Source: Myxococcales bacterium
GTDB taxonomy: Bacteria; Myxococcota_A; Polyangia; Polyangiales; Polyangiaceae
NCBI GenBank assembly: GCA_013297655.1
Contig: JAAFHV010000001.1
Span: forward strand, 1-64,000
Direction: 5' to 3'
Length of the DNA: 64,000 nucleotides
The notes under the pieces were generated by a model. The model ran no database searches, was not told where the DNA came from, and saw nothing but the letters and a program-made list of their open reading frames with translations. The translations under genes and the position numbers were made by a program. Shown here piece after piece: positions 1-49,116 of the stretch (positions are counted from its first letter, which is position 1; every line of letters starts with the position of its first letter).

Positions 1-2
1 CC

Positions 3-581
3 GACGGGAGCGCCGGCGTATTCGCAAAAGAGCTCGAGAAGCCGGGCCGCGACTTCGTGCGGGTGGTCACGGTACCTTCGCCGAACGTGGGGTATGGCCA
101 CGGCATCGTCACGGGCCTCCGCGCCGCCAAGGGCGAGCTCCTCGCGTGGACCCACGCCGACGGCCAAACACCCCCGAAAGACGTGCTCCGCGCGTTCGAG
201 ATGCTCGAGTCGGCCCCCGATCCGGAGGCCACCCTCGTAAAAGGCAGGCGCCGCGCGCGCCCCCTCCGCGACACGCTCTTCACGATGGGAATGCAGGCCG
301 CCGCGCTCGCGATCCTCGGCGAGAGCCTGGAGGACATCAACGGGCAACCCAAGTGTTTCCCGCGCCGCCTCTTCGAGCTCGCGTCCAACCCGCCGACCGA
401 TCTCTCGCTCGATCTCTACTTCTTCTATGTCGCGAAGAAGAACGGCTTCGCGGTGCGCACGTTCGACGTGCAGTTCGGCGACCGCGAGCACGGCGAGTCG
501 AAGTGGGCATTCAACTTTCGCTCGAAGGCGCGCAACGTCGCCCGGAGCGTGAAGTACATGGCCGCCCTGCGTCGGGGGTAG
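3..581 (+). CDS. Family 2 glycosyltransferase, 5' end outside window
   Basis: The reading frame is open from the window edge (starting DGSAGVFAKEL), so the N-terminus lies upstream. What remains looks like the later part of a GT-A fold transferase of family 2: a VGYGHGIVTGLRAAKG segment is followed by a WTHADGQT stretch that fits the nucleotide-sugar/metal site, and later by the conserved PPTDLSLDLYFFYVAKK and HGESKWAF segments seen in dolichol-phosphate-mannose-synthase-like enzymes. No C-terminal membrane segments follow, so it is probably soluble or peripheral. It would transfer a sugar from a nucleotide donor; the acceptor cannot be told. No gene follows on the same strand. The first in-frame GTG, at 57, is inside the domain and unlikely to be the start. 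Confidence 0.8.
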   Translation, partial: DGSAGVFAKELEKPGRDFVRVVTVPSPNVGYGHGIVTGLRAAKGELLAWTHADGQTPPKDVLRAFEMLESAPDPEATLVKGRRRARPLRDTLFTMGMQAAALAILGESLEDINGQPKCFPRRLFELASNPPTDLSLDLYFFYVAKKNGFAVRTFDVQFGDREHGESKWAFNFRSKARNVARSVKYMAALRRG

Positions 582-826
582 GCTGCACGCGACGGCTCGG
601 CCCAACCCCTCAATCGAAGGAAGAAACCGCGCCGCGCTCGGCGTTCAGGGTCGAAATACGCGATGAGCAGGGCGCCGGAAGCGTCGCGAGGGCCGTCCAG
701 CAGCGACGGATGCCCGCGCACGATCTACCTGACCCCTTCGTGATTCTTGATGGCGGTCTGGAATCGATCTGCGGTCGCAGCCTTCGAGTGGCCGCGTTGA
801 CTGAGCGTCATCGAGCGTTCGGAAGG

Positions 827-1360
827 TCACTTGACCTTCGCGACAAGCGACGCTGAGAACCCGCGTTGTGGGTCTGCGAGAAAGACACCCCACGCCGCCT
901 CCATGAAGTCGACCCCAACCACCTTCGATGCGACGTGGCCACCAATGGACAGGAGCGTGGTCTTCGTGGCCGCGCGGTACGAAAGGATGACCCGGGTTCG
1001 GGCGGCGATTTTCGAGGTAGTGCACGCGCTAACGAACGCCCCCTCTTTGGTGGCGTCGCGCATGTTTTGGCGTCTCAGGCCTGCCCGCAGGAACGCCTGG
1101 AAGCTCGAGCACGTACTTTCACGATAGAAAGTCACCGTGAACTGCTTGTCGACGTCAGCGCGAGCGATGCCCCGCGCCGTTCTATCGACGGGGACCGTCT
1201 TCATTTCGTGAATCACGGTGAGCTCTCGGCTCGACCCGTCCAGCTTCGTGGCGGCGCCCGTGGTGACCCAGCCCGAAGGCTCCGGATCCCGCGCGGCTGC
1301 CATTGGTGATGCGAAGCCGATCACCGTCGCAGCGACCACGAAAATAGGCAATCGATTCAT
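827..1360 (-). CDS. Secreted chalcone-isomerase-like protein
   Basis: A 177-residue protein with a Sec signal peptide (MNRLPIFVVAATVIGFASPMAA). The rest resembles the bacterial chalcone-isomerase-like fold: a helix around FQAFLRAGLRR, then a strand pattern ILSYRAATKTTLLSIGGHV and the terminal DFMEAAWGVFLADPQ block where family members usually have a W-x-I-W-L-G motif. These bacterial proteins are generally not flavonoid enzymes, so only the fold is called. The start at 1360 is chosen because GGAGG lies five bases upstream. A longer start at 1387 overlaps the previous stop in an ATGA arrangement. It follows the lipoprotein at 1384-2730 by 23 bases and is probably cotranscribed with it. Confidence 0.6.
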   Translation of the reverse strand: MNRLPIFVVAATVIGFASPMAAARDPEPSGWVTTGAATKLDGSSRELTVIHEMKTVPVDRTARGIARADVDKQFTVTFYRESTCSSFQAFLRAGLRRQNMRDATKEGAFVSACTTSKIAARTRVILSYRAATKTTLLSIGGHVASKVVGVDFMEAAWGVFLADPQRGFSASLVAKVK

Positions 1361-1383
1361 ACGATCCTCCATGAGCCTGCCGA

Positions 1384-2730
1384 TCATAGTCCGGGTGCCA
1401 CCGTCGGAGCGCCAAGCGCCGACCGGGGGATCTTCACAGCGCCGCGGCCAAACAAAACCTCGGCCGGCGGTATGGGAGCCGAGGCATGAAGCCAGATCGC
1501 GTCGTCATTCACCCAGAGCGGCTGTATGTAGTCCATTCCCGTCTCGGCTGGCACGTCCCAGCCCATTCCATCCGAAAGGCGAATGATGCGTGCCTTCTTC
1601 GGCCCCACGACGATAGCGACGACGCCCGCGTTGGCGACGAATCCATTCTCGAAGGGGGCACGCGCGATTGCGCGGCGCGCGAGGGCGCCCTCGGTCGTCG
1701 CGTAGGGTGCAGTCCAGAAGACATGGTCGGCCTCCGACGTCGCTTCCGTCCAGACGAGGGCGTTTCCTGCTGCGCGGTCGACCCCATAGTAGGTAACAAC
1801 CCCTTGGGAGGGTCGAACAACCGTGCGATTTCCTCCCGCGAGCGGAGCGAATACGATCGTCGGGGGGTTCGTCGCCGCGAGGGCGAAGTAGCCATCTGCC
1901 AAAGGGATCGGGAGCTCGAGGGGGAGGCCATGCCCCGGCGAGGCGGCCACGAACTGTTCGCTGGAGAATGGGTAGGCCGACGTCGTGACGGAGGGGCCGC
2001 CGTTGGCTTCCGCAACCAGGTAGTCGCTCCAGCGAGTGATGCCCTGGTACCTGAATAGCGTTGGCGACACGCTAGCTCGAACCATTCGCACGTCTGTCGC
2101 TCGAAGCGAGTTAGCGTGTCCGACGTAGCCCCGCGCACTAGACTCGATAGCGGCGATCGCGAGCCCAAATCGCGATGCATGGATGTTCACGACACATCCG
2201 TTGACCATTCGAAGTGCCGACTCCGCGGAGCCCTCCATACTATGAACCACGGCGAACATCTCTCCACCCGCGGGATTGATGGCGTATGTGCGGCGAGACG
2301 CCAGGTGCACCCCACTCCCATCCTCGTACGCGGCCTCCAAACGCTGTGGCTGGAACTGGTTGTGCGGCACACCCCAATCGGCGAGGAACGAGATGCAGCC
2401 ACTGATGCCGTTCGCGCATGGCTTCCACGGGAACGGGCGAATCGCGACGGTAGGGTCTTTCGCGACGCGAAGCCCACACCCCTCAGGCATTCCTGCAAGT
2501 GGAATCCAGTCACCAGGGAGACTTACGGTGGCGTCCGCGAGTGGTGGCAGCGTGGCGTCCAAAGTCGCGTCGCGACCGGTTCGGTCTGCGGGGCCGTCGC
2601 TCGCTGCTACATCGCGCGCACCGTCGATGAGGGTAAGGGATGGCGGTGGCACCGAACCGCACGATGAGGTCGCGTAGAATGCGACTCCCGTCGCCAAGAA
2701 GACGCCAGAGAAGAGCAGAGCGCGCTTCAT
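1384..2730 (-). CDS. Predicted lipoprotein, beta-propeller-like, unknown function
   Basis: A 448-residue protein starting MKRALLFSGVFLATGVAF with a weak lipobox (ATSSC, Cys about 24), so it is probably exported and lipid-anchored. After an Asp/Ala-rich linker it has repeated strand-rich segments (for example YFALAATNPPTIVFAPL and ALVWTEATSEADHVFWTAPY) that look like beta-propeller blades. No catalytic motif is recognised. The start at 2730 is chosen because the signal peptide begins there; the frame is open further upstream but without a credible signal. The third-position GC preference looks weaker than in most genes of the window. It is the first gene of a likely two-gene unit with the chalcone-isomerase-like protein. 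Confidence 0.65.
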   Translation of the reverse strand: MKRALLFSGVFLATGVAFYATSSCGSVPPPSLTLIDGARDVAASDGPADRTGRDATLDATLPPLADATVSLPGDWIPLAGMPEGCGLRVAKDPTVAIRPFPWKPCANGISGCISFLADWGVPHNQFQPQRLEAAYEDGSGVHLASRRTYAINPAGGEMFAVVHSMEGSAESALRMVNGCVVNIHASRFGLAIAAIESSARGYVGHANSLRATDVRMVRASVSPTLFRYQGITRWSDYLVAEANGGPSVTTSAYPFSSEQFVAASPGHGLPLELPIPLADGYFALAATNPPTIVFAPLAGGNRTVVRPSQGVVTYYGVDRAAGNALVWTEATSEADHVFWTAPYATTEGALARRAIARAPFENGFVANAGVVAIVVGPKKARIIRLSDGMGWDVPAETGMDYIQPLWVNDDAIWLHASAPIPPAEVLFGRGAVKIPRSALGAPTVAPGL

Positions 2731-3040
2731 GGCGCGAACATGCCCTCCCATGCATGAGAACCGATAGACGACCGCCGGTGCATCCGAAGCCTCGCTTTCG
2801 CGTCGAGCCTGCGACGAACGAGTCCACCGTGCAACGATTGACTTCGAGCGCGGCACGGAGGCCATCCGGGCTCCCTTTCGCGCGGTCTTCACCATGGCGA
2901 TGCAGGCCGCCGCGCCAAGAAGCAGAACTGTTCCTCTAAAGTAAGCGATCTATTTTTTCGTCGCTTTCCTTGACAGGCCGCGGAAGCGCGGTCATCCTCG
3001 TGCTCATGCGGCGTTCGTATCGAGCCCGCGCCACCACGCC

Positions 3041-3247
3041 ATGAGCCCCATTTCTTCCATCGCTGCCCGCACCCCGGTGTGCCTCGCTCGCTCGAGCAAA
3101 GTCGCGTGCGCATCGCCCGCCGCCGTCGTGTCTTCTCGCGCTTCTCGTGGGGCGCGCTCGTTGCGGCCGTTGCACGGCTTGCATCACACGCATCGCACGC
3201 ACGGCACGCATCACGTGCATCGCAGCGCGGTGGTTTCCCAGGCATAA
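3041..3247 (+). CDS. Doubtful His-rich small ORF
   Basis: A 68-codon frame whose C-terminal quarter carries eight histidines within about 17 residues (LHGLHHTHRTHGTHHVHRSA, residues 44-63). It ends 27 bases before a strong intrinsic terminator. No Shine-Dalgarno sequence is evident before the ATG and the rest of the peptide is undistinguished. The His codons could simply reflect a low-complexity CACGCATC-type repeat. If translated, the His run followed by a terminator is the geometry of an amino-acid attenuator leader, or it could bind metal. No his biosynthetic gene follows within the window. Confidence 0.2.
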   Translation: MSPISSIAARTPVCLARSSKVACASPAAVVSSRASRGARSLRPLHGLHHTHRTHGTHHVHRSAVVSQA

Positions 3248-3274
3248 GCGCCTCTCCTCATCGGAGGCTCGCGA

Positions 3275-3311
3275 AAGGCCGCTCGGGAAACCGAGTGGCC
3301 TTCGTCTTTTT
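3275..3311 (+). terminator. Intrinsic terminator with GAAA tetraloop
   Basis: A 12-base-pair stem with one G-T pair (AAGGCCGCTCGG against CCGAGTGGCCTT) closed by a GAAA tetraloop and followed by CGTCTTTTT. The T-run favours plus-strand termination. No annotated plus-strand gene ends here, so it implies a short transcript starting between about 2940 and 3250, or an attenuator. Confidence 0.75.
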
Positions 3312-3637
3312 GGGCCACGTGTGTCGCATCGGCGGCGACGAGCGCAAAAGGCCGACACGGTGTCCCGGAGCTGCACGATCGCGCGGGCACTCGGGCCACG
3401 GGCCGCACGGCGCGGGTTGTATCGAGCTCTGGCTCTGTCGCGTGGCGGGCGAGGCGCCTGCCTGGCTCGCACCGGCATCCGACGGTTCAGATAGGTGTTC
3501 GCACGCCTATTCAAACCGTAAAGTTTCGCAGATCAAACCTATATTTTGGTGACGTGGCTCGTCTGGCGACGAGGGTCGGCTGTGAACCGATGGAGGCGGG
3601 TAATAGACCTTCGGTAACGATCCCCGTACGTCACCCC

Positions 3638-3690
3638 GCTGCGCGGCTTCGGCTGCGTGGCACATTGCTGCGCGGCTTCGGCTGCGTGGC
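3638..3690. repeat. 24-base direct repeat
   Basis: The 24 bases at 3638-3661 recur exactly at 3667-3690, with a five-base spacer (period 29). Each copy is itself built from GCTGCGCGGCTTCGGCTGCG-type words. It lies 60-110 bases upstream of the tRNA. It could be a replication-slippage product or part of the upstream control region; nothing in the sequence decides this. Confidence 0.7.
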
Positions 3691-3749
3691 CACCGGATGC
3701 CACGAGGGTTACTTCGAACCTATCCCTCGCTCTCCACTTGCCGGTTTTT

Positions 3750-3822
3750 GCCGACGTAACCCAATTGGTAGAGGCCCACCCTCAAAAGGTGAAAAGTGTC
3801 CGTTCGAATCGGACCGTCGGCA
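3750..3822 (+). tRNA. tRNA with anticodon CAA, short variable loop
   Basis: A 73-base cloverleaf. The acceptor stem pairs GCCGACG (3750-3756) with CGTCGGC (3815-3821), discriminator A at 3822. The T-stem GTCCG/CGGAC is perfect around loop TTCGAAT. The anticodon loop is CTCAAAA (3781-3787), giving anticodon CAA at 3783-3785, which would read the Leu codon UUG. The variable loop is only five bases (AAAGT), whereas true tRNA-Leu has a long variable arm. The D-stem is poor (ACCC against GAGG, two of four pairs) and the outermost anticodon-stem pair is a C-A mismatch. CCA is not encoded (CCT follows). It may be a degenerate, retuned or non-canonical tRNA gene. Confidence 0.7.
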
Positions 3823-3853
3823 CCTCGCTAACCAACTAAGCCGTGGACAAAAG

Positions 3854-8041: not shown

Positions 8042-9157
8042 ATGCGCGCTCTTTCGTCTTTCTTCGTTCTCGTCTCGTCGGTCACGCTCGCCGCTTGCGG
8101 AGGGCAAATTCAGGGGGAAGACACGCCCGGAGGCTCGCGCGACCCTTCGCCTTCCCCTAGCGGCGTGCCCACCGTTCCCTCCGGATTTTCACCCGCGCCT
8201 TCCGCACCGGTCGCGCCGCCCGCGCCTTCGCCGCTCTCGTGTCCGGCCGCGGGCACCGGCATCGCGGGTGCCTCGTTCGTAAGCTCGTCGATCGCGCTGG
8301 ACGCGGCCACCTACCACCTCGAGCTGCCCCAAGATCGCGGCGGGTTGCCGCAGCTCGTGGAGGGCGTCTGGAGCGGCTCGACCCACGCGGTCTCGACCAC
8401 CCTCCCCGGCGCCCGCGGCATGGCGGAGCTCGAGAAGCTCTCGTCCGACTTGTGGGGCGTCACGGAAGGTTTCTCCGACGCGGCATCGCGCAACGTCGTC
8501 GTGTACCGGCGCATGATTCGACTCGGCTCCTTCCTCGTCCCGAACGGGAGCCTCGATCGCACCTTCTTGACCGAGGGGATCTCTCCGGACGGCTCGAAGG
8601 TCGTGTACCAAAGCGGACGCTCCGTCGCGGTCGCGCCGGTCGCCGTGGGCGACGGATGGCAACGCAACGCTCGCACCATCTGCGTCGACGACTGCGAGCT
8701 CTTGTGGGCCAAAAGCGACGAAGTGCTCATGGTGCGCCGCGCGAGCGGAGCCCCCGAGATGCTCATCCGAAGGTATTACGCCGCGATCGACACGCCCTCG
8801 CTCGACGTGGTCGACCCCACCGCAGGCCGCAAGGTGGTCGCGGTCACGACGAACCGAATCTTCCTCGGCGCCTCGGAGCGAAACGCTCCGCTCGTGCTCG
8901 ACCGCGCGACCCTCACCCCCGTGCCCTTCACGTGGGATCCGTCCGACGCGATCCGCGCAGCGCAGGAGCGCGCCGACGGATCGTTCGACATCTTCTCCAT
9001 CTATTCGGGCGAAATCGCGAGCGCGAAACACGTGTCGTCGACGGGCCGAACGCTCGGCGAGGGCGAAGGCCGCGCCATGTACGGTCAGGTCAGCGTCGGC
9101 GCGTGTGGCTTCTGGAGCGACGGAACGCTCGTACCCTTCGCCAAAGACACCCGCTGA
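8042..9157 (+). CDS. Lipoprotein, second of a tandem paralogous pair
   Basis: A 371-residue paralogue of the protein at 6602-7726. It has a lipobox (TLAAC), a Ser/Pro-rich linker and the same strand-rich domain with DCELLWAK and IYSGEIASAKHV blocks. The start at 8042 is chosen because GGAGGTGGAAT precedes the ATG and the signal peptide (MRALSSFFVLVSSVTLAAC) begins there. The stop lies three bases from the stop of the convergent HIT gene, so the two transcripts must overlap. Function unknown; both copies keep full length, which suggests that both are used. Confidence 0.75.
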   Translation: MRALSSFFVLVSSVTLAACGGQIQGEDTPGGSRDPSPSPSGVPTVPSGFSPAPSAPVAPPAPSPLSCPAAGTGIAGASFVSSSIALDAATYHLELPQDRGGLPQLVEGVWSGSTHAVSTTLPGARGMAELEKLSSDLWGVTEGFSDAASRNVVVYRRMIRLGSFLVPNGSLDRTFLTEGISPDGSKVVYQSGRSVAVAPVAVGDGWQRNARTICVDDCELLWAKSDEVLMVRRASGAPEMLIRRYYAAIDTPSLDVVDPTAGRKVVAVTTNRIFLGASERNAPLVLDRATLTPVPFTWDPSDAIRAAQERADGSFDIFSIYSGEIASAKHVSSTGRTLGEGEGRAMYGQVSVGACGFWSDGTLVPFAKDTR

Positions 9158-25163: not shown

Positions 25164-25646
25164 TCACCGCGGAGAAGCATTCCGCGCCGACCACTCCGCC
25201 CAATAGGCCCGCCCGGCCTCCTGCAGCTCTGCGACCGAACGCGTGATCCCGTGCTCGTCGTGGATTTCGACCGCTTCGGCCGTGAAACGAAGCTCCCCGC
25301 CCACGTCGGCGACGATCTTCCCGTGCCGCAAAATGCGCACGATCACGCTCCCGTCGTCGCTCACCTCGCCCTCCAAAATATCCACCTTGTTGGAGAGCAC
25401 CTCGTCCGCCAAGACAGGAGGCTTCGGCCCCTCGCCCGGATCGGACCAGGGGAAATAGAGCAAATCGCGAATGCCTCGCAGCGTGACGCGGATCGCACGA
25501 GAGCTCGGCGTGAGCCGCTCGGCGACGTAGCCAATCTGCACCGTCAAGACGAGTGACCCGTCCGCGTGCGAGGCCCGCGCGACGCCGTCGTGGAGCACAC
25601 AAAAAAGAGCGGCGATGCTCTCGTGGACGGGATTCGATTCAGGCAT
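25164..25646 (-). CDS. Unknown protein coupled to PARG
   Basis: A 160-residue soluble protein, mixed alpha/beta, with no signal peptide and no family I recognise. Notable blocks are HESIAALFCVLHDGVARASH, LRGIRDLLYFPWSDPGEG and VDILEGEVSDDGSVIVRILR. Its ATG at 25646 lies inside the end of the upstream PARG gene (eight-base overlap), a strong sign of translational coupling and shared function. It could be a regulator or partner of the ADP-ribose hydrolase, but this is inference from position only. Confidence 0.6.
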   Translation of the reverse strand: MPESNPVHESIAALFCVLHDGVARASHADGSLVLTVQIGYVAERLTPSSRAIRVTLRGIRDLLYFPWSDPGEGPKPPVLADEVLSNKVDILEGEVSDDGSVIVRILRHGKIVADVGGELRFTAEAVEIHDEHGITRSVAELQEAGRAYWAEWSARNASPR

Positions 25647-26487
25647 TCGCGAAGCGATCTCGGAACGCGGCGTAGGTCGCGCCCTCTGCGCTTCGATCGT
25701 ACACCGCGAACACCACCCGCGAGAACGCACCGGCAAATGCTGGCGACGCGAGCAGCTCCGCGAAGGTGCGCGCGACTACCTTCGGATCGTTGCGAAACAC
25801 GCCGCAACCCCACGCGCCGAGAACCAGCGCGCGGTACCCCTTCGCCACCGCGAGGGCGAGGATCCCCTTCGCGCGCGCGGCGAGACATGCCTCTAGCGCC
25901 TGCGCGGAAGGATTCTCGGTGCGAAAATATTCGCCCGCGTTCGGTGCCGGGCTCGTCACGATCGACAGCAAAAAGGGCCGCTCCAGGAGCTCGAGCTTCG
26001 AATCGCGGAAGAACGGGACTGCCGGCGAATAGATCATGTGATCGGTGTAGAGCATCGAGCCGCACGCTCGGTTCTCGTCGTAATAGGCACGTTGGGTGAG
26101 CTGGCAGGTGTAGAGCGCGGAGCATCGCGCCAAGTCTTCTTCTTGCGCTTTCGCACCACGCAAGAAGCCGCCCCCCGGGTTTTTGGCAGACGCATAGTTG
26201 AGCGCGAGCACCTTGGGCTCGCCTTCGGTCTCGACCAGCCTACGGCCCGCGTCGTCCGTCTTTTCGCGGGTAACTTCGATCCGGGTCGGCGCTCCGCGTT
26301 CTACCGGTACGAGCGCGGCGACGAGTGCCTCCAGCGCGGCGGGGCGCAGGAGCGTGGTGCCGGCGACAGCATCACGAACGTGCGATGCGATGTCGACCGA
26401 AGCCCCGGAAGGAGCGACGTATGCGCCCTCCGTGACGATGCGAAGCGTGTCTTGTGCGATTCCTACGAGTGCCATGGGGATACCCAT
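25639..26487 (-). CDS. Bacterial-type poly(ADP-ribose) glycohydrolase (TIGR02452)
   Basis: A 282-residue protein of the microbial PARG family. The signature is plain: NYASAKNPGGGFLRGAKAQEEDLARCS holds the GGG loop (105-107) and the QEE catalytic pair (Gln115, Glu116-117), followed by YTDHMIYSP and GAWGCGVFRNDP, the macrodomain-like ADP-ribose binding part. The enzyme removes ADP-ribose chains or ADP-ribosyl groups from macromolecules. No ADP-ribosyltransferase is seen in the window. The start may be 26487 or the ATG at 26475. It overlaps the next gene (25164-25646) by eight bases. Confidence 0.88.
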   Translation of the reverse strand: MGIPMALVGIAQDTLRIVTEGAYVAPSGASVDIASHVRDAVAGTTLLRPAALEALVAALVPVERGAPTRIEVTREKTDDAGRRLVETEGEPKVLALNYASAKNPGGGFLRGAKAQEEDLARCSALYTCQLTQRAYYDENRACGSMLYTDHMIYSPAVPFFRDSKLELLERPFLLSIVTSPAPNAGEYFRTENPSAQALEACLAARAKGILALAVAKGYRALVLGAWGCGVFRNDPKVVARTFAELLASPAFAGAFSRVVFAVYDRSAEGATYAAFRDRFANA

Positions 26488-26594: not shown

Positions 26595-27209
26595 TCAGTC
26601 GGCGCTGGCGTCGCCGAGACCTGCGTCGGGAGCCGTGAGCGCGAGGGTGCCGGACCAGCAGGTCTTTCCATTGCAACCTGCGCTCTTCGACTGAGCGACC
26701 GAAGAAGGGCCAGCACCGAAGAGGAGGCCGCGGTCGCCGTCACGCTCGAGTCGTACGGTGAAGAGCGTCGACGGGACGATGTTGACCCCACGCGACGAAA
26801 ACCGGAGCGCGAGGCTCACCTTCCCTCCCTCGATCCGGTAGGCGCACTCGAACGCCGCGAGGGTGCCGGTGCTCCCGCACTGCCCACGATCGGCCAAGGT
26901 TTTTGGCAAACGTTGCTCGACGCACGTCTCGTCGACACACGCCACGATCACGGCCGTAGCTGCCTCGGGAGGCGTGAGCGCAGGCACCGTCACGTCGACG
27001 CGGCTCGAACAATCGAAGGCGCACTGTCCGCCGGACGACGGGGCGGGAGGTGCGGGAACGTCCGAGAATCCTTCCGGCGCGGCCACCGATCCGCACGCCA
27101 CCACGAGGCCGACGACGGCGACGAGCACCCCTCGTTTCGACCGGGTAGACGGTGCGCGTAAGTCAAGATGTTCACCCGAATACGAGGTGGGCTTCGAATG
27201 GCGATTCAT
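26595..27209 (-). CDS. Small Cys-containing lipoprotein of unknown function
   Basis: A 204-residue protein with a late lipobox (GLVVAC, Cys39) after a long charged N-region, then a beta-rich domain with about eight cysteines in short spacings (CAFDC, CVDETC, CNGKTC), probably disulfide-bonded outside the cytoplasm. Its ATG overlaps the stop of the upstream lipoprotein by four bases (ATGA), so it belongs to the same operon as the paralogous pair at 27206-29326. No known domain is recognised. Confidence 0.65.
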   Translation of the reverse strand: MNRHSKPTSYSGEHLDLRAPSTRSKRGVLVAVVGLVVACGSVAAPEGFSDVPAPPAPSSGGQCAFDCSSRVDVTVPALTPPEAATAVIVACVDETCVEQRLPKTLADRGQCGSTGTLAAFECAYRIEGGKVSLALRFSSRGVNIVPSTLFTVRLERDGDRGLLFGAGPSSVAQSKSAGCNGKTCWSGTLALTAPDAGLGDASAD

Positions 27210-28252
27210 GTTTTGACGACGTAGGGGTTAGGGGAGAAGCGGAGCCCTTCCAGATCGGTCGCGAGGCGTTCGAGCTCCCCGCTGCTCGCCCCGGCGGCTC
27301 CGAACCAGCTCGTGAACGCCGTCGACGCAAGGAAGCGCGCGGGGCGACTCGGCCCGATGTTCGACCAGCCTCGCAGCACGCTCGCGCACCCCGATCCGAC
27401 GCGCTCGTGGGTGCAGTCGAGCTCCTTCGCGAGGCTGCGAAGATCGGCGATCTCGGCCTCGAGGCGATCGACGATCGCCTGCGTGCCGAGGCTGCACTCG
27501 GCGATCATGGCGCTATTTCCGAGGTAAAATTCGCGGTAAATCAAGGGCTCCGCTCCCGCGGTGGGGCAGTGCATATCGTAGCCGGTGCCGTAGCTCACGT
27601 TCGTGTCGTTCAAGAAAAAGAACGCGGCGATACGCTCCGGTGCGGCGAGGGCGACGGCGCTCGCGACCTCCCCTCCGCCGATATCGAAGAACGCATAACG
27701 ACGATCGCGAAACGAAGCGCGAAACGAAACGAAGATGGACTCGGGCTTGAAACGGAACGAGAGGATCTCGTTGCCATAACGCTCCGGCGAGATTCGTGTG
27801 CCCGCGAGGAAGGGCCACCCGAAGCGGCCAACGGCGAATCGTTTGCTCGAGAGCAGCTTCGGTATCGGATCGCGTGGGTCGTGTTTCGTGTGCGCGGCGA
27901 GCACGTCGAAGAGGTGGCCGCGGTGGCCCGCTTTGTTCGTGGACCGCGTAAACACAGGATCACCACGCCGGAGCCCCGCGGCCTGCTCTGCGGTGGTGAA
28001 CGAATAGAGCGTGGGAAGCGTGGGCTTCGTCGACGAGATGCCCGTGAGCGCACGGAGAGCCACGCCCATCTCGGGCACACACGGGCCGGTCTCGGCGTCC
28101 GGAATGGGTGCGCTCGGGGCTGGAGGTGGCGCGGCATCGAGCTTCTCGAGCTTCACCTCGGCGTGCGGTGGAGGCGCGACGGCCCGATTCTCTCGGCACG
28201 CGGCCGCGAGTAGACTCCCGACGAGGAACGGGCGCCGACCGAGCTTACGCAC
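27206..28252 (-). CDS. Tat-type lipoprotein, paralogue B
   Basis: A 348-residue protein starting MRKLGRRPFLVGSLLAAAC, a twin-arginine signal joined to a lipobox (Cys19). The body is close to the neighbour at 28286-29326: LPTLYSFTTAEQAAGLRRGD, VGRFGWPFLAGTRISPE, APERIAAFFFLND, YREFYLGNSAMIAECSLGTQ and TAFTSWFG all recur. Tat export suggests that it folds before export, perhaps with a cofactor or as a complex. No known catalytic motif is recognised. It is 33 bases downstream of its paralogue and overlaps the next gene by four bases. Confidence 0.7.
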   Translation of the reverse strand: MRKLGRRPFLVGSLLAAACRENRAVAPPPHAEVKLEKLDAAPPPAPSAPIPDAETGPCVPEMGVALRALTGISSTKPTLPTLYSFTTAEQAAGLRRGDPVFTRSTNKAGHRGHLFDVLAAHTKHDPRDPIPKLLSSKRFAVGRFGWPFLAGTRISPERYGNEILSFRFKPESIFVSFRASFRDRRYAFFDIGGGEVASAVALAAPERIAAFFFLNDTNVSYGTGYDMHCPTAGAEPLIYREFYLGNSAMIAECSLGTQAIVDRLEAEIADLRSLAKELDCTHERVGSGCASVLRGWSNIGPSRPARFLASTAFTSWFGAAGASSGELERLATDLEGLRFSPNPYVVKT

Positions 28253-28285: not shown

Positions 28286-29326
28286 TCATGCGGTGACGAT
28301 ATACGGGTTAGGGACGAAACGCAGAGTCTCGAGATCGTCGGCGAGGCGGGCGATTTCCGCGCCGGTGATACCGATGCTGCCGAACCAACTCGCGAACGCC
28401 GTCGATGCAATGAAGGAGTCGGCGCGTGTTCGTCCCCCCGACGCCCATGTCGCGACGACGCCCTCGCAGGTCGATCCGACGCGGCCACGGGTGCAATCGA
28501 GGTCGTTCGCGAGGCTGCGCAGATCGGCGATTTCAGCATCGAGGCGGTCGAGGATGGCCTGTGTGCCGAGGCTCCACTCCGCGAGCATCCCCGGGTTTCC
28601 GAGGTAAAATTCGCGGTACAGGAGGGGTAATACTGGAGGGACGCGGCATCGGAAGTCGGGGCCTCCTGTCCCGTATTGCATGTTCGAGTCGTTGAAGAAG
28701 AAGAACGCCGCGATGCGCTCGGGCGCCGCCATCGCGACCTCCGTCTTTACCTCCGCGCCGGCGCCATCGAAGCACCAATACCGGGCGCGCCTACCGACAT
28801 CGACGAAGATGGCCTCCGCCTTGAAACGAAACGCGAGGATCTCGTCGCCGTACTTCTCGGGCGAGATGCGCGATCCGGCGAGGAACGGCCATCCGAACCG
28901 CCCGAGCTCGAATCGCGGGCCGGTGAGCAACTTCGCCACCGGGTCCGGTGGATTTCGGTTCGCGCGCGCATCGAGCTCGTCGAACAGATAGCCGCGATGG
29001 CCCGCGTCGTTCGTGGCCTTGGAGAACACCGGGTCGCCGCGACGTAGACCCGCCACCTGCTCCGCCGTGGTGAACGAGTACAGGGTGGGCGCGTGCGGTC
29101 GTGCGTTGAAGAGGCCCGTCAGGGCGCGAAGACGTGCCCCCGGGTTTCGGTCTACACACCTGGGTACTTCGTAGATCGGCCCCCCCTCGAACGGAACCAG
29201 ACCGGGCAAGGCGTCGGAGGCGCCCGCGTCGAAGGAAGGCTTGGGGGGACGTTCGATGCTTCCGTCGCGGCACGCGGCGACGAGGAGACTGCCAAGCAAG
29301 AACGGGCGCCGGCCTACCCTACGCAT
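28286..29326 (-). CDS. Tat-type lipoprotein, paralogue A
   Basis: A 346-residue protein starting MRRVGRRPFLLGSLLVAAC (Tat motif plus lipobox, Cys19), the first gene of a three-gene operon of lipoproteins. The conserved core shared with 27206-28252 spans nearly the whole length. The conserved pieces YSFTTAEQVAGLRRGDPVFS, YLFDELDA and GRFGWPFLAGSRISPEKYGD contain several invariant aromatic and charged residues. The family is unknown to me. Tandem duplication with both copies intact suggests diverged or dosage-related roles. Confidence 0.7.
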   Translation of the reverse strand: MRRVGRRPFLLGSLLVAACRDGSIERPPKPSFDAGASDALPGLVPFEGGPIYEVPRCVDRNPGARLRALTGLFNARPHAPTLYSFTTAEQVAGLRRGDPVFSKATNDAGHRGYLFDELDARANRNPPDPVAKLLTGPRFELGRFGWPFLAGSRISPEKYGDEILAFRFKAEAIFVDVGRRARYWCFDGAGAEVKTEVAMAAPERIAAFFFFNDSNMQYGTGGPDFRCRVPPVLPLLYREFYLGNPGMLAEWSLGTQAILDRLDAEIADLRSLANDLDCTRGRVGSTCEGVVATWASGGRTRADSFIASTAFASWFGSIGITGAEIARLADDLETLRFVPNPYIVTA

Positions 29327-48579: not shown

Positions 48580-49116
48580 ATGGACGCGCCCTCGAACGAC
48601 GTGAAGCTGCACTTGGTCGACCAGGATCGGGCGGTCGTCGCGGCCTGGCGCGTGCACTTTGCACCTTTTCCGGAGGTCACGATCGCGGAAGGCGATCTCC
48701 TCGCCGTGGCGCGCCACGCGGTGGTCTCGCCGGCGAACGGCTATGGCTTCATGGATGGCGGGATCGATCGAGCGTACGCCGCATTTTTCGGTCCGAGGCT
48801 CGAGGCTTTGGTCGTCGACATGACGCGCCTTCGTCCCGAGGGCCACCTCCCGGTCGGCGCCGCCGAGCTCGTACCTACCGGCCACGCGCGCATCCCGTAT
48901 CTCATCGTCGCGCCGACGGTGCTCCTCCCCGAGCACGTCCCCGCGCTCAACGCACAGAGAGCCCTTCGCGCCGTCCTCCGCGTCGCCTCACGATCCCCCC
49001 ACCTCGTCCCCGAAGTGTATTGCCCTGGGCTCGCCACCGGCGTCGGAGCGGTCAGCCCCGACGAAGCCGCCCACCACATGGCCGCCGCGTACGCCGCGTG
49101 GAGAATTCCCCGTTAG
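48580..49116 (+). CDS. Macrodomain protein
   Basis: A 178-residue macrodomain, an ADP-ribose-binding fold. The loop VVSPANGYGFMDGGIDRAYA is the hallmark (usually SPANxxGxxGGGVDxAI), with GHARIPYLIVAPT and YCPGLATGVGAVSPDEAAHH as later conserved parts. Two features differ from the canonical enzyme: FMDGGID replaces the usual triple glycine, and the distal loop reads GLATGVGAV. It may bind ADP-ribose or a related ligand, or hydrolyse it. It is eight bases downstream of the DUF362 gene with GGAGCG before the ATG, so they form an operon. No signal peptide. Confidence 0.82.
   Translation: MDAPSNDVKLHLVDQDRAVVAAWRVHFAPFPEVTIAEGDLLAVARHAVVSPANGYGFMDGGIDRAYAAFFGPRLEALVVDMTRLRPEGHLPVGAAELVPTGHARIPYLIVAPTVLLPEHVPALNAQRALRAVLRVASRSPHLVPEVYCPGLATGVGAVSPDEAAHHMAAAYAAWRIPR

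What the first reader, a model, noticed from the sequence alone, without database searches (positions are those of the whole stretch)
25164..26487. Bacterial PARG translationally coupled to an unknown protein
The TIGR02452-type PARG overlaps by eight bases with a 160-residue protein of no known family. Such tight overlap usually marks partners of one process. Reversal of ADP-ribosylation is a growing theme in bacterial defence and stress control, and the partner could regulate or target the hydrolase. No ADP-ribosyltransferase is encoded next to it.
Basis: partly seen in the sequence, partly recalled or inferred. Interest (0 to 1): 0.6.

Follow-up and report, generated by a model that had tools for sequence, protein, structure and literature searches.

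The report
Ordinary PARG beside rare orphan protein
A standard bacterial ADP-ribose-removing enzyme sits head-to-tail with a small acidic protein of an uncatalogued, patchy family whose predicted shape resembles a toxin-neutralising protein, but the pairing was seen only in this genome, so it is probably a local coupling rather than a conserved system.

Summary
A bacterial-type PARG (25639-26487, minus strand) overlaps by eight bases the start of a 160-residue ORF (25164-25646, minus) that matches no Pfam or NCBIfam model. The PARG is orthodox: TIGR02452 288.8 bits, intact GGG-X7-QEE signature. The partner is a real gene with relatives in Myxococcota, Pseudomonadota and a Bacteroidota plasmid, a rare 'LHDG' family. 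Overlap itself is common here; the next upstream gene pair also overlaps. Confident models (pLDDT 90 and 92) of two family members both best match PIM7, the immunity protein of the DNase toxin PT7, followed by NFACT-N and Fpg/Nei N-terminal domains. Z is 7.2-7.8, so this is suggestive only. All 11 members analysed are acidic. Most likely the partner is a mobile, protein-binding, immunity-type protein that happens to be co-transcribed with a chromosomal PARG. A PARG-specific regulatory role is not excluded but unsupported. The partner family's fold link is the interesting residue; the pairing is ordinary.

The parts
25639..26487 (-). Bacterial-type PARG (TIGR02452 / PF10021), 282 aa
   Evidence: TIGR02452 288.8 bits (cut-off 50), PF10021 166.5 bits (cut-off 23.5); closest solved relative by sequence is the PARG 3sig_A, E 1.2e-67
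26137..26175 (-). PARG signature GGG-X7-QEE (residues 105-117); second Glu, E117, aligns with the residue changed in the mutant chain 3sij
   Evidence: signature definition GGG-X6-8-QEE from PMC5966428 (passage)
25164..25646 (-). Partner protein, 160 aa, 'LHDG' family (name mine)
   Evidence: AlphaFold2 model mean pLDDT 90.1, pTM 0.84
25639..25646 (-). Eight-base overlap of PARG stop and partner start
25584..25595 (-). Partner L18-H19-D20-G21; H, D and G invariant in 11 aligned members
25200..25205 (-). Partner Y148-W149 in the last helix; W invariant, Y in 8 of 9 non-redundant rows
26595..27209 (-). Next gene upstream of PARG, 204 aa, no family; overlaps its own upstream neighbour by 4 bases

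Best explanation
The PARG is an ordinary chromosomal bacterial PARG that removes ADP-ribose from 2'-OH or phosphate-linked sites (nucleic acid or protein). The downstream gene encodes a small acidic protein of a patchily distributed accessory family with a predicted beta-sandwich fold resembling PIM7 and NFACT-N/FpgN domains. It most likely works as a stoichiometric protein-binding, immunity-type protein that occludes a nuclease-like toxin or other basic target. It landed behind PARG in this lineage and is co-transcribed and translationally coupled to it, but it is not an obligate PARG subunit. Shown: gene identities, overlap, family distribution, lack of recurrent PARG adjacency. Predicted: fold. 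Inferred: toxin binding, co-transcription, coupling.
For: PARG family and signature intact. PARG is common among relatives without the partner: 43 of 144 genomes have TIGR02452, while 1 of 59 (the window's own genome) has the partner at E<=0.001. 0 of 13 distinct partner loci hold PARG; in the five partner-bearing genomes with an above-cut-off PARG it lies on other contigs. 0 of 40 other PARG loci hold the partner. The partner family is sparse and mobile: 10 of 377 Myxococcota at E<=0.01, three of them weak; 3 of 398 Pseudomonadota; a Persicobacter plasmid; near-identical gene arrays shared by Hyphomonas and Sphingorhabdus contigs. Two models best match PIM7 8owu_E: Z 7.2, rmsd 4.0, 93 aligned and Z 7.8, rmsd 2.8, 90 aligned of 115. 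11 of 11 members have pI 4.1-5.2.
Against: Z is below 8, which the tool says may be only a common arrangement. Foldseek gives no match at E<=0.001, and PIM7 is not among the 50 listed Foldseek rows of the second model. No toxin gene was identified beside the window gene. Sequence does not place the partner in Imm50. The next matches after PIM7 are an NFACT-N protein and an uncharacterised protein, so a nucleic-acid or ribosome role is not excluded.
Confidence: 0.5

Rival explanations
1. The partner is a PARG-specific regulator or targeting subunit: made in 1:1 ratio by translational coupling, it binds PARG and directs or inhibits it.
For: Eight-base overlap; acidic partner pI 5.2 versus near-neutral PARG pI 7.6.
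Against: 0 of 13 partner-family loci and 0 of 40 other PARG loci show the pair; overlaps occur in 3 of 25 other same-strand pairs here; partner relatives occur in genomes where no PARG was found: G311, G453, G456.
Confidence: 0.13
2. The pair is a two-gene protection cassette: PARG reverses ADP-ribosylation by incoming toxins while the partner blocks a second toxin by binding. They share a purpose but not a complex.
For: Bacterial PARGs protect E. coli from the RNA-modifying toxin RhsP2 (PMC11833690, passages); partner fold match to an immunity protein.
Against: Neighbours of the pair are lipoprotein-like, kinase, PEGA and TPR/HEAT genes, not toxins or defence genes; no recurrence of the pair.
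Confidence: 0.2
3. The partner is a nucleic-acid or ribosome-binding protein of the NFACT-N/FpgN fold working with PARG in RNA repair, as PARG is proposed to do beside RNA ligase and kinase in Deinococcus.
For: NFACT-N and Fpg/Nei N-terminal domains form the block of matches below PIM7. PARG lies between an RNA ligase gene and an AAA-family gene in D. radiodurans (PMC11833690). In Anabaena a TIGR02452 gene is derepressed together with RtcB in a trcR mutant (PMC10272220, passage). KptA/Tpt1 is present in this genome.
Against: 11 of 11 members are acidic, unlike nucleic-acid binders. The Fpg-like N-terminal Pro-Glu (recalled as the catalytic feature) occurs only in the window protein, in none of the other members whose start was aligned.
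Confidence: 0.12

Closest known systems
Bacterial-type PARG (TIGR02452, PF10021; solved 3sig, 5zdb)
   Same: Full-length homology, GGG-X7-QEE, catalytic Glu position
   Different: Nothing found in the protein; the gene order differs from the D. radiodurans RNA ligase-PARG-AAA order
PIM7(Bc), immunity protein of DNase toxin PT7 (8owu_E)
   Same: Best fold match of two family models, Z 7.2 and 7.8
   Different: 8-10% identity, about 40 residues shorter, no sequence match; no PT7-like toxin identified beside the window gene
Imm50 (PF15594)
   Same: Sub-threshold match of the Persicobacter relative, E 0.13, 12.7 bits; described as mostly beta (PMC3482391)
   Different: No match of the window protein; below the 27.1-bit cut-off
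NFACT-N / Fpg-Nei N-terminal domains
   Same: Z 5.6-6.8 (NFACT-N entries) and about 4-5 (Fpg/Nei)
   Different: Stand-alone, acidic, too short for the further domains of those proteins, no conserved N-terminal Pro-Glu

Membership tests
Bacterial-type PARG | TIGR02452 and PF10021 scores over curated cut-offs | tested here: met
   288.8 vs 50 bits; 166.5 vs 23.5 bits
Bacterial-type PARG | GGG-X6-8-QEE signature with catalytic Glu | tested here: met
   GGG-X7-QEE, residues 105-117
Bacterial-type PARG | ADP-ribose hydrolase activity | not testable with these tools
   needs purified protein
Imm50 (PF15594) | Score over the Pfam cut-off of 27.1 bits | tested here: not met
   window protein no match at E<=10; best relative 12.7 bits
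PIM7-like / FpgN-NFACT-N fold | Same fold by structure comparison | tested here: inconclusive
   Z 7.2 and 7.8 to 8owu_E; no Foldseek E<=0.001
Fpg/Nei glycosylase | Conserved N-terminal catalytic Pro-Glu (recalled) | tested here: not met
   P2-E3 only in the window protein; other members start with other residues
Polymorphic-toxin immunity protein | Encoded directly beside a toxin gene | tested here: inconclusive
   window neighbours scanned show no toxin family; neighbours of relatives only partly scanned
Conserved PARG-partner module | Recurrent adjacency in independent genomes | tested here: not met
   0 of 13 partner loci, 0 of 40 PARG loci

The most novel reading that the evidence does not exclude
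The LHDG family is an uncatalogued family of acidic immunity-type proteins on the FpgN/NFACT-N fold, found alone or fused to a CPCC zinc domain and carried on mobile arrays; in this myxobacterium it has been teamed with PARG into a two-gene operon giving both enzymatic and binding protection against toxins.
Probability: 0.17. Interest if true: 0.55.

Novelty: new member of a known kind. Interest (0 to 1): 0.28.

Why it matters
As a PARG-partner system it does not matter much: the pairing does not recur. If the partner family is confirmed as an immunity family, it would add a lineage to the known immunity folds and tie together PIM7, a CPCC-fused form and orphan genes in several phyla. The PARG itself is one more case for the open question of what bacterial PARGs without a PARP act on; this genome has KptA/Tpt1, one candidate source of ADP-ribosylated ends named in PMC11833690.

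Tried and rejected
PARG-partner as a conserved module: rejected. Imm50 membership: window protein not matched; Imm50 was found in 1 of 200 Pseudomonadota and 0 of 59 relatives, and no relative of that one on plasmids, so no Imm50 alignment could be built for a profile comparison. Solved relatives by sequence: none for the partner family, only chance-level matches for the short member. Viral relatives: none by scan, phage tblastn, or at E<=0.001 in the viral fold library. PADLOC: none. Many weak partner matches (E 0.004-0.1) were dropped as chance; L005, E 4.2e-5, was dropped because an overlapping frame reads as a long 1028-aa protein and the family profile did not list G285. PARP catalytic domain in this genome: none, but the control genomes were silent too. 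Papers: nothing listed tied TIGR02452 to this partner. I found no open paper on PIM7 itself; PT7 as a DNase comes from a review passage (PMC9990079). Promoter scan found nothing.

Limits: 30 of 48 PARG matches were fetched as loci (29 besides the window's), with about 1.5 kb of flank at most, some cut by contig ends. The genome-contig scan used two short peptide patterns, so distant relatives are missed. The gene caller is my own rough one and missed the partner itself.

Full report
What is there. On the minus strand, a 282-residue ORF at 25639-26487 and a 160-residue ORF at 25164-25646 overlap by eight bases. The first is a bacterial-type PARG: TIGR02452 288.8 bits and PF10021 166.5 bits, both far above cut-off; it aligns nearly end to end with the solved PARG 3sig (E 1.2e-67) and keeps GGG-X7-QEE, with E117 at the position changed in the mutant chain 3sij. 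It is the only TIGR02452 match in the genome. The second has no Pfam or NCBIfam match at E<=10, no PADLOC match at E<=1 and only chance-level PHROG matches.

Is the overlap special? In a rough gene call of the window, 3 of 25 same-strand neighbour pairs overlap, the nearest being the next pair upstream, 26595-27209/27206-28252, by four bases. My caller missed the PARG-partner pair itself because it preferred an opposite-strand ORF there, so that pair is not among the 25. The pair sits at the 3' end of a tight run of minus-strand genes reaching to 34817. No consensus promoter was found, and terminator-like sites were no more than expected from shuffles. So the overlap suggests co-transcription and coupling but by itself says little about shared function.

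Is the partner found elsewhere? Yes. It was found in 1 of 59 close relatives (its own genome) at E<=0.001, but in a phylum sample there were clear relatives in G253 (E 8.6e-18) and G350 (E 3.1e-8), and a weaker one in G227 (E 8.2e-4), where the same domain follows a CPCC zinc domain, PF14206 57.7 bits. A five-row profile gave 10 of 377 Myxococcota genomes at E<=0.01, four of them being rows of the profile and three weak. Scans of species genomes and plasmids added an Oxalobacteraceae bacterium, two Hyphomonas, a Sphingorhabdus metagenome bin and a Persicobacter plasmid; 3 of 398 Pseudomonadota genomes had it, one being the centre from which the sample was drawn. No relative was found in phage records or viral contigs. 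H19, D20, G21, G117, L119 and W149 are invariant in 11 aligned rows, of which three are nearly identical. I call it the LHDG family; the name is mine.

Does it go with PARG? No. In 13 distinct partner-family loci besides the window, tblastn with PARG at E<=10 gave no PARG (one chance match of E 1.7). Of 11 partner-bearing genomes or records, 7 have a TIGR02452 match at E<=0.001 and 5 a match above cut-off, always on another contig; 4 have none (for Persicobacter only the plasmid was searched). From the other side, 43 of 144 relatives have TIGR02452; of their 48 matches 30 were fetched, and none of the 29 besides the window's has the partner within about 1.5 kb. Four above-cut-off PARG loci from 369 Pseudomonadota and seven from plasmids and phages also lack it. 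That is 0 of 40.

What is the partner? AlphaFold2 models from an 11-row alignment are confident: the window protein pLDDT 90.1, pTM 0.84; the G253 relative 91.6, 0.85. Both are an N-terminal helix, eight main strands with short helices between, and a long C-terminal helix. For both, the best structural match is 8owu_E, the immunity protein PIM7 bound to the toxin PT7: Z 7.2, rmsd 4.0, 93 aligned and Z 7.8, rmsd 2.8, 90 aligned of 115. PT7 is described as a non-specific DNase, probably secreted by a type VII system (PMC9990079, passage read). [quoted passage not shown] The agreement of the two models is not fully independent evidence, since they share an alignment. The scores stay under Z 8 and Foldseek found nothing at E<=0.001, so the fold assignment is a lead. 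All 11 members are acidic, pI 4.1-5.2, which fits a protein that binds basic proteins better than one that binds nucleic acid (inference). One relative touches Imm50 below threshold (12.7 of 27.1 bits).

How it most likely works. PARG: hydrolyses ADP-ribose linkages. [quoted passage not shown] coli, and act on ADP-ribosylated phosphate ends as made by KptA/Tpt1 (PMC11833690, passages read). This genome has a KptA/Tpt1 (172 bits). The D. radiodurans PARG sits between an RNA ligase gene and an AAA-family gene, with overlaps of 4 and 25 bases, and an Anabaena TIGR02452 gene is derepressed with RtcB in a trcR mutant (PMC10272220, passage). These point to RNA repair or protection, without any need for the LHDG protein. 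Partner: most likely a stoichiometric, immunity-type binder, mobile and accessory: its Hyphomonas and Sphingorhabdus copies sit in shared arrays of small unknown genes, with a tRNA-Val gene nearby in two of the loci scanned. The step from fold to toxin binding is inference, and I identified no cognate toxin.

Verdict. Observation confirmed; interpretation as a functional pair not supported by recurrence; partner not unique to this genome. The PARG is a new member of a known kind; the partner family is uncatalogued in the libraries searched and its fold link deserves a test. Confidence in the best explanation is 0.5 because the partner's function rests on a model and on a match below the reliable range.

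Noticed in passing
window 48580-49116 (+): A second macrodomain protein (PF01661, 39.0 bits, cut-off 22) about 22 kb from PARG.
   Followed up: partly
window 27206-28252 and 28286-29326 (-): Two adjacent paralogous genes (348 and 346 aa) with lipoprotein-like starts and no Pfam or NCBIfam match.
   Followed up: no
L090 (G000:C124:3540-4040): KptA/Tpt1 RNA 2'-phosphotransferase family gene in the window's own genome, 172.4 bits.
   Followed up: partly
L080 8936-9640, L081 7772-8677: LHDG domain behind a CPCC zinc domain: PF14206 match in the first (same gene in L006); the second looks alike by eye only.
   Followed up: partly
L075, L077, L087, L088: Near-identical arrays of about ten small unknown genes shared by Hyphomonas-type genomes and a Sphingorhabdus bin, one near tRNA-Val and one beside a gene that looks by eye like an integrase.
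   Followed up: partly
L100 (Aneurinibacillus plasmid) 1-3831: PARG shortly downstream of SAVED-domain and nucleotidyltransferase genes, a CBASS-like neighbourhood.
   Followed up: no
L097 and hits H26-H33: PARG relatives in giant phages: Bacillus phage G gp114 and Prevotella Lak phages.
   Followed up: no
L082 about 8200-8600: LHDG-like gene in G396 split over two reading frames, possibly a frameshift.
   Followed up: no
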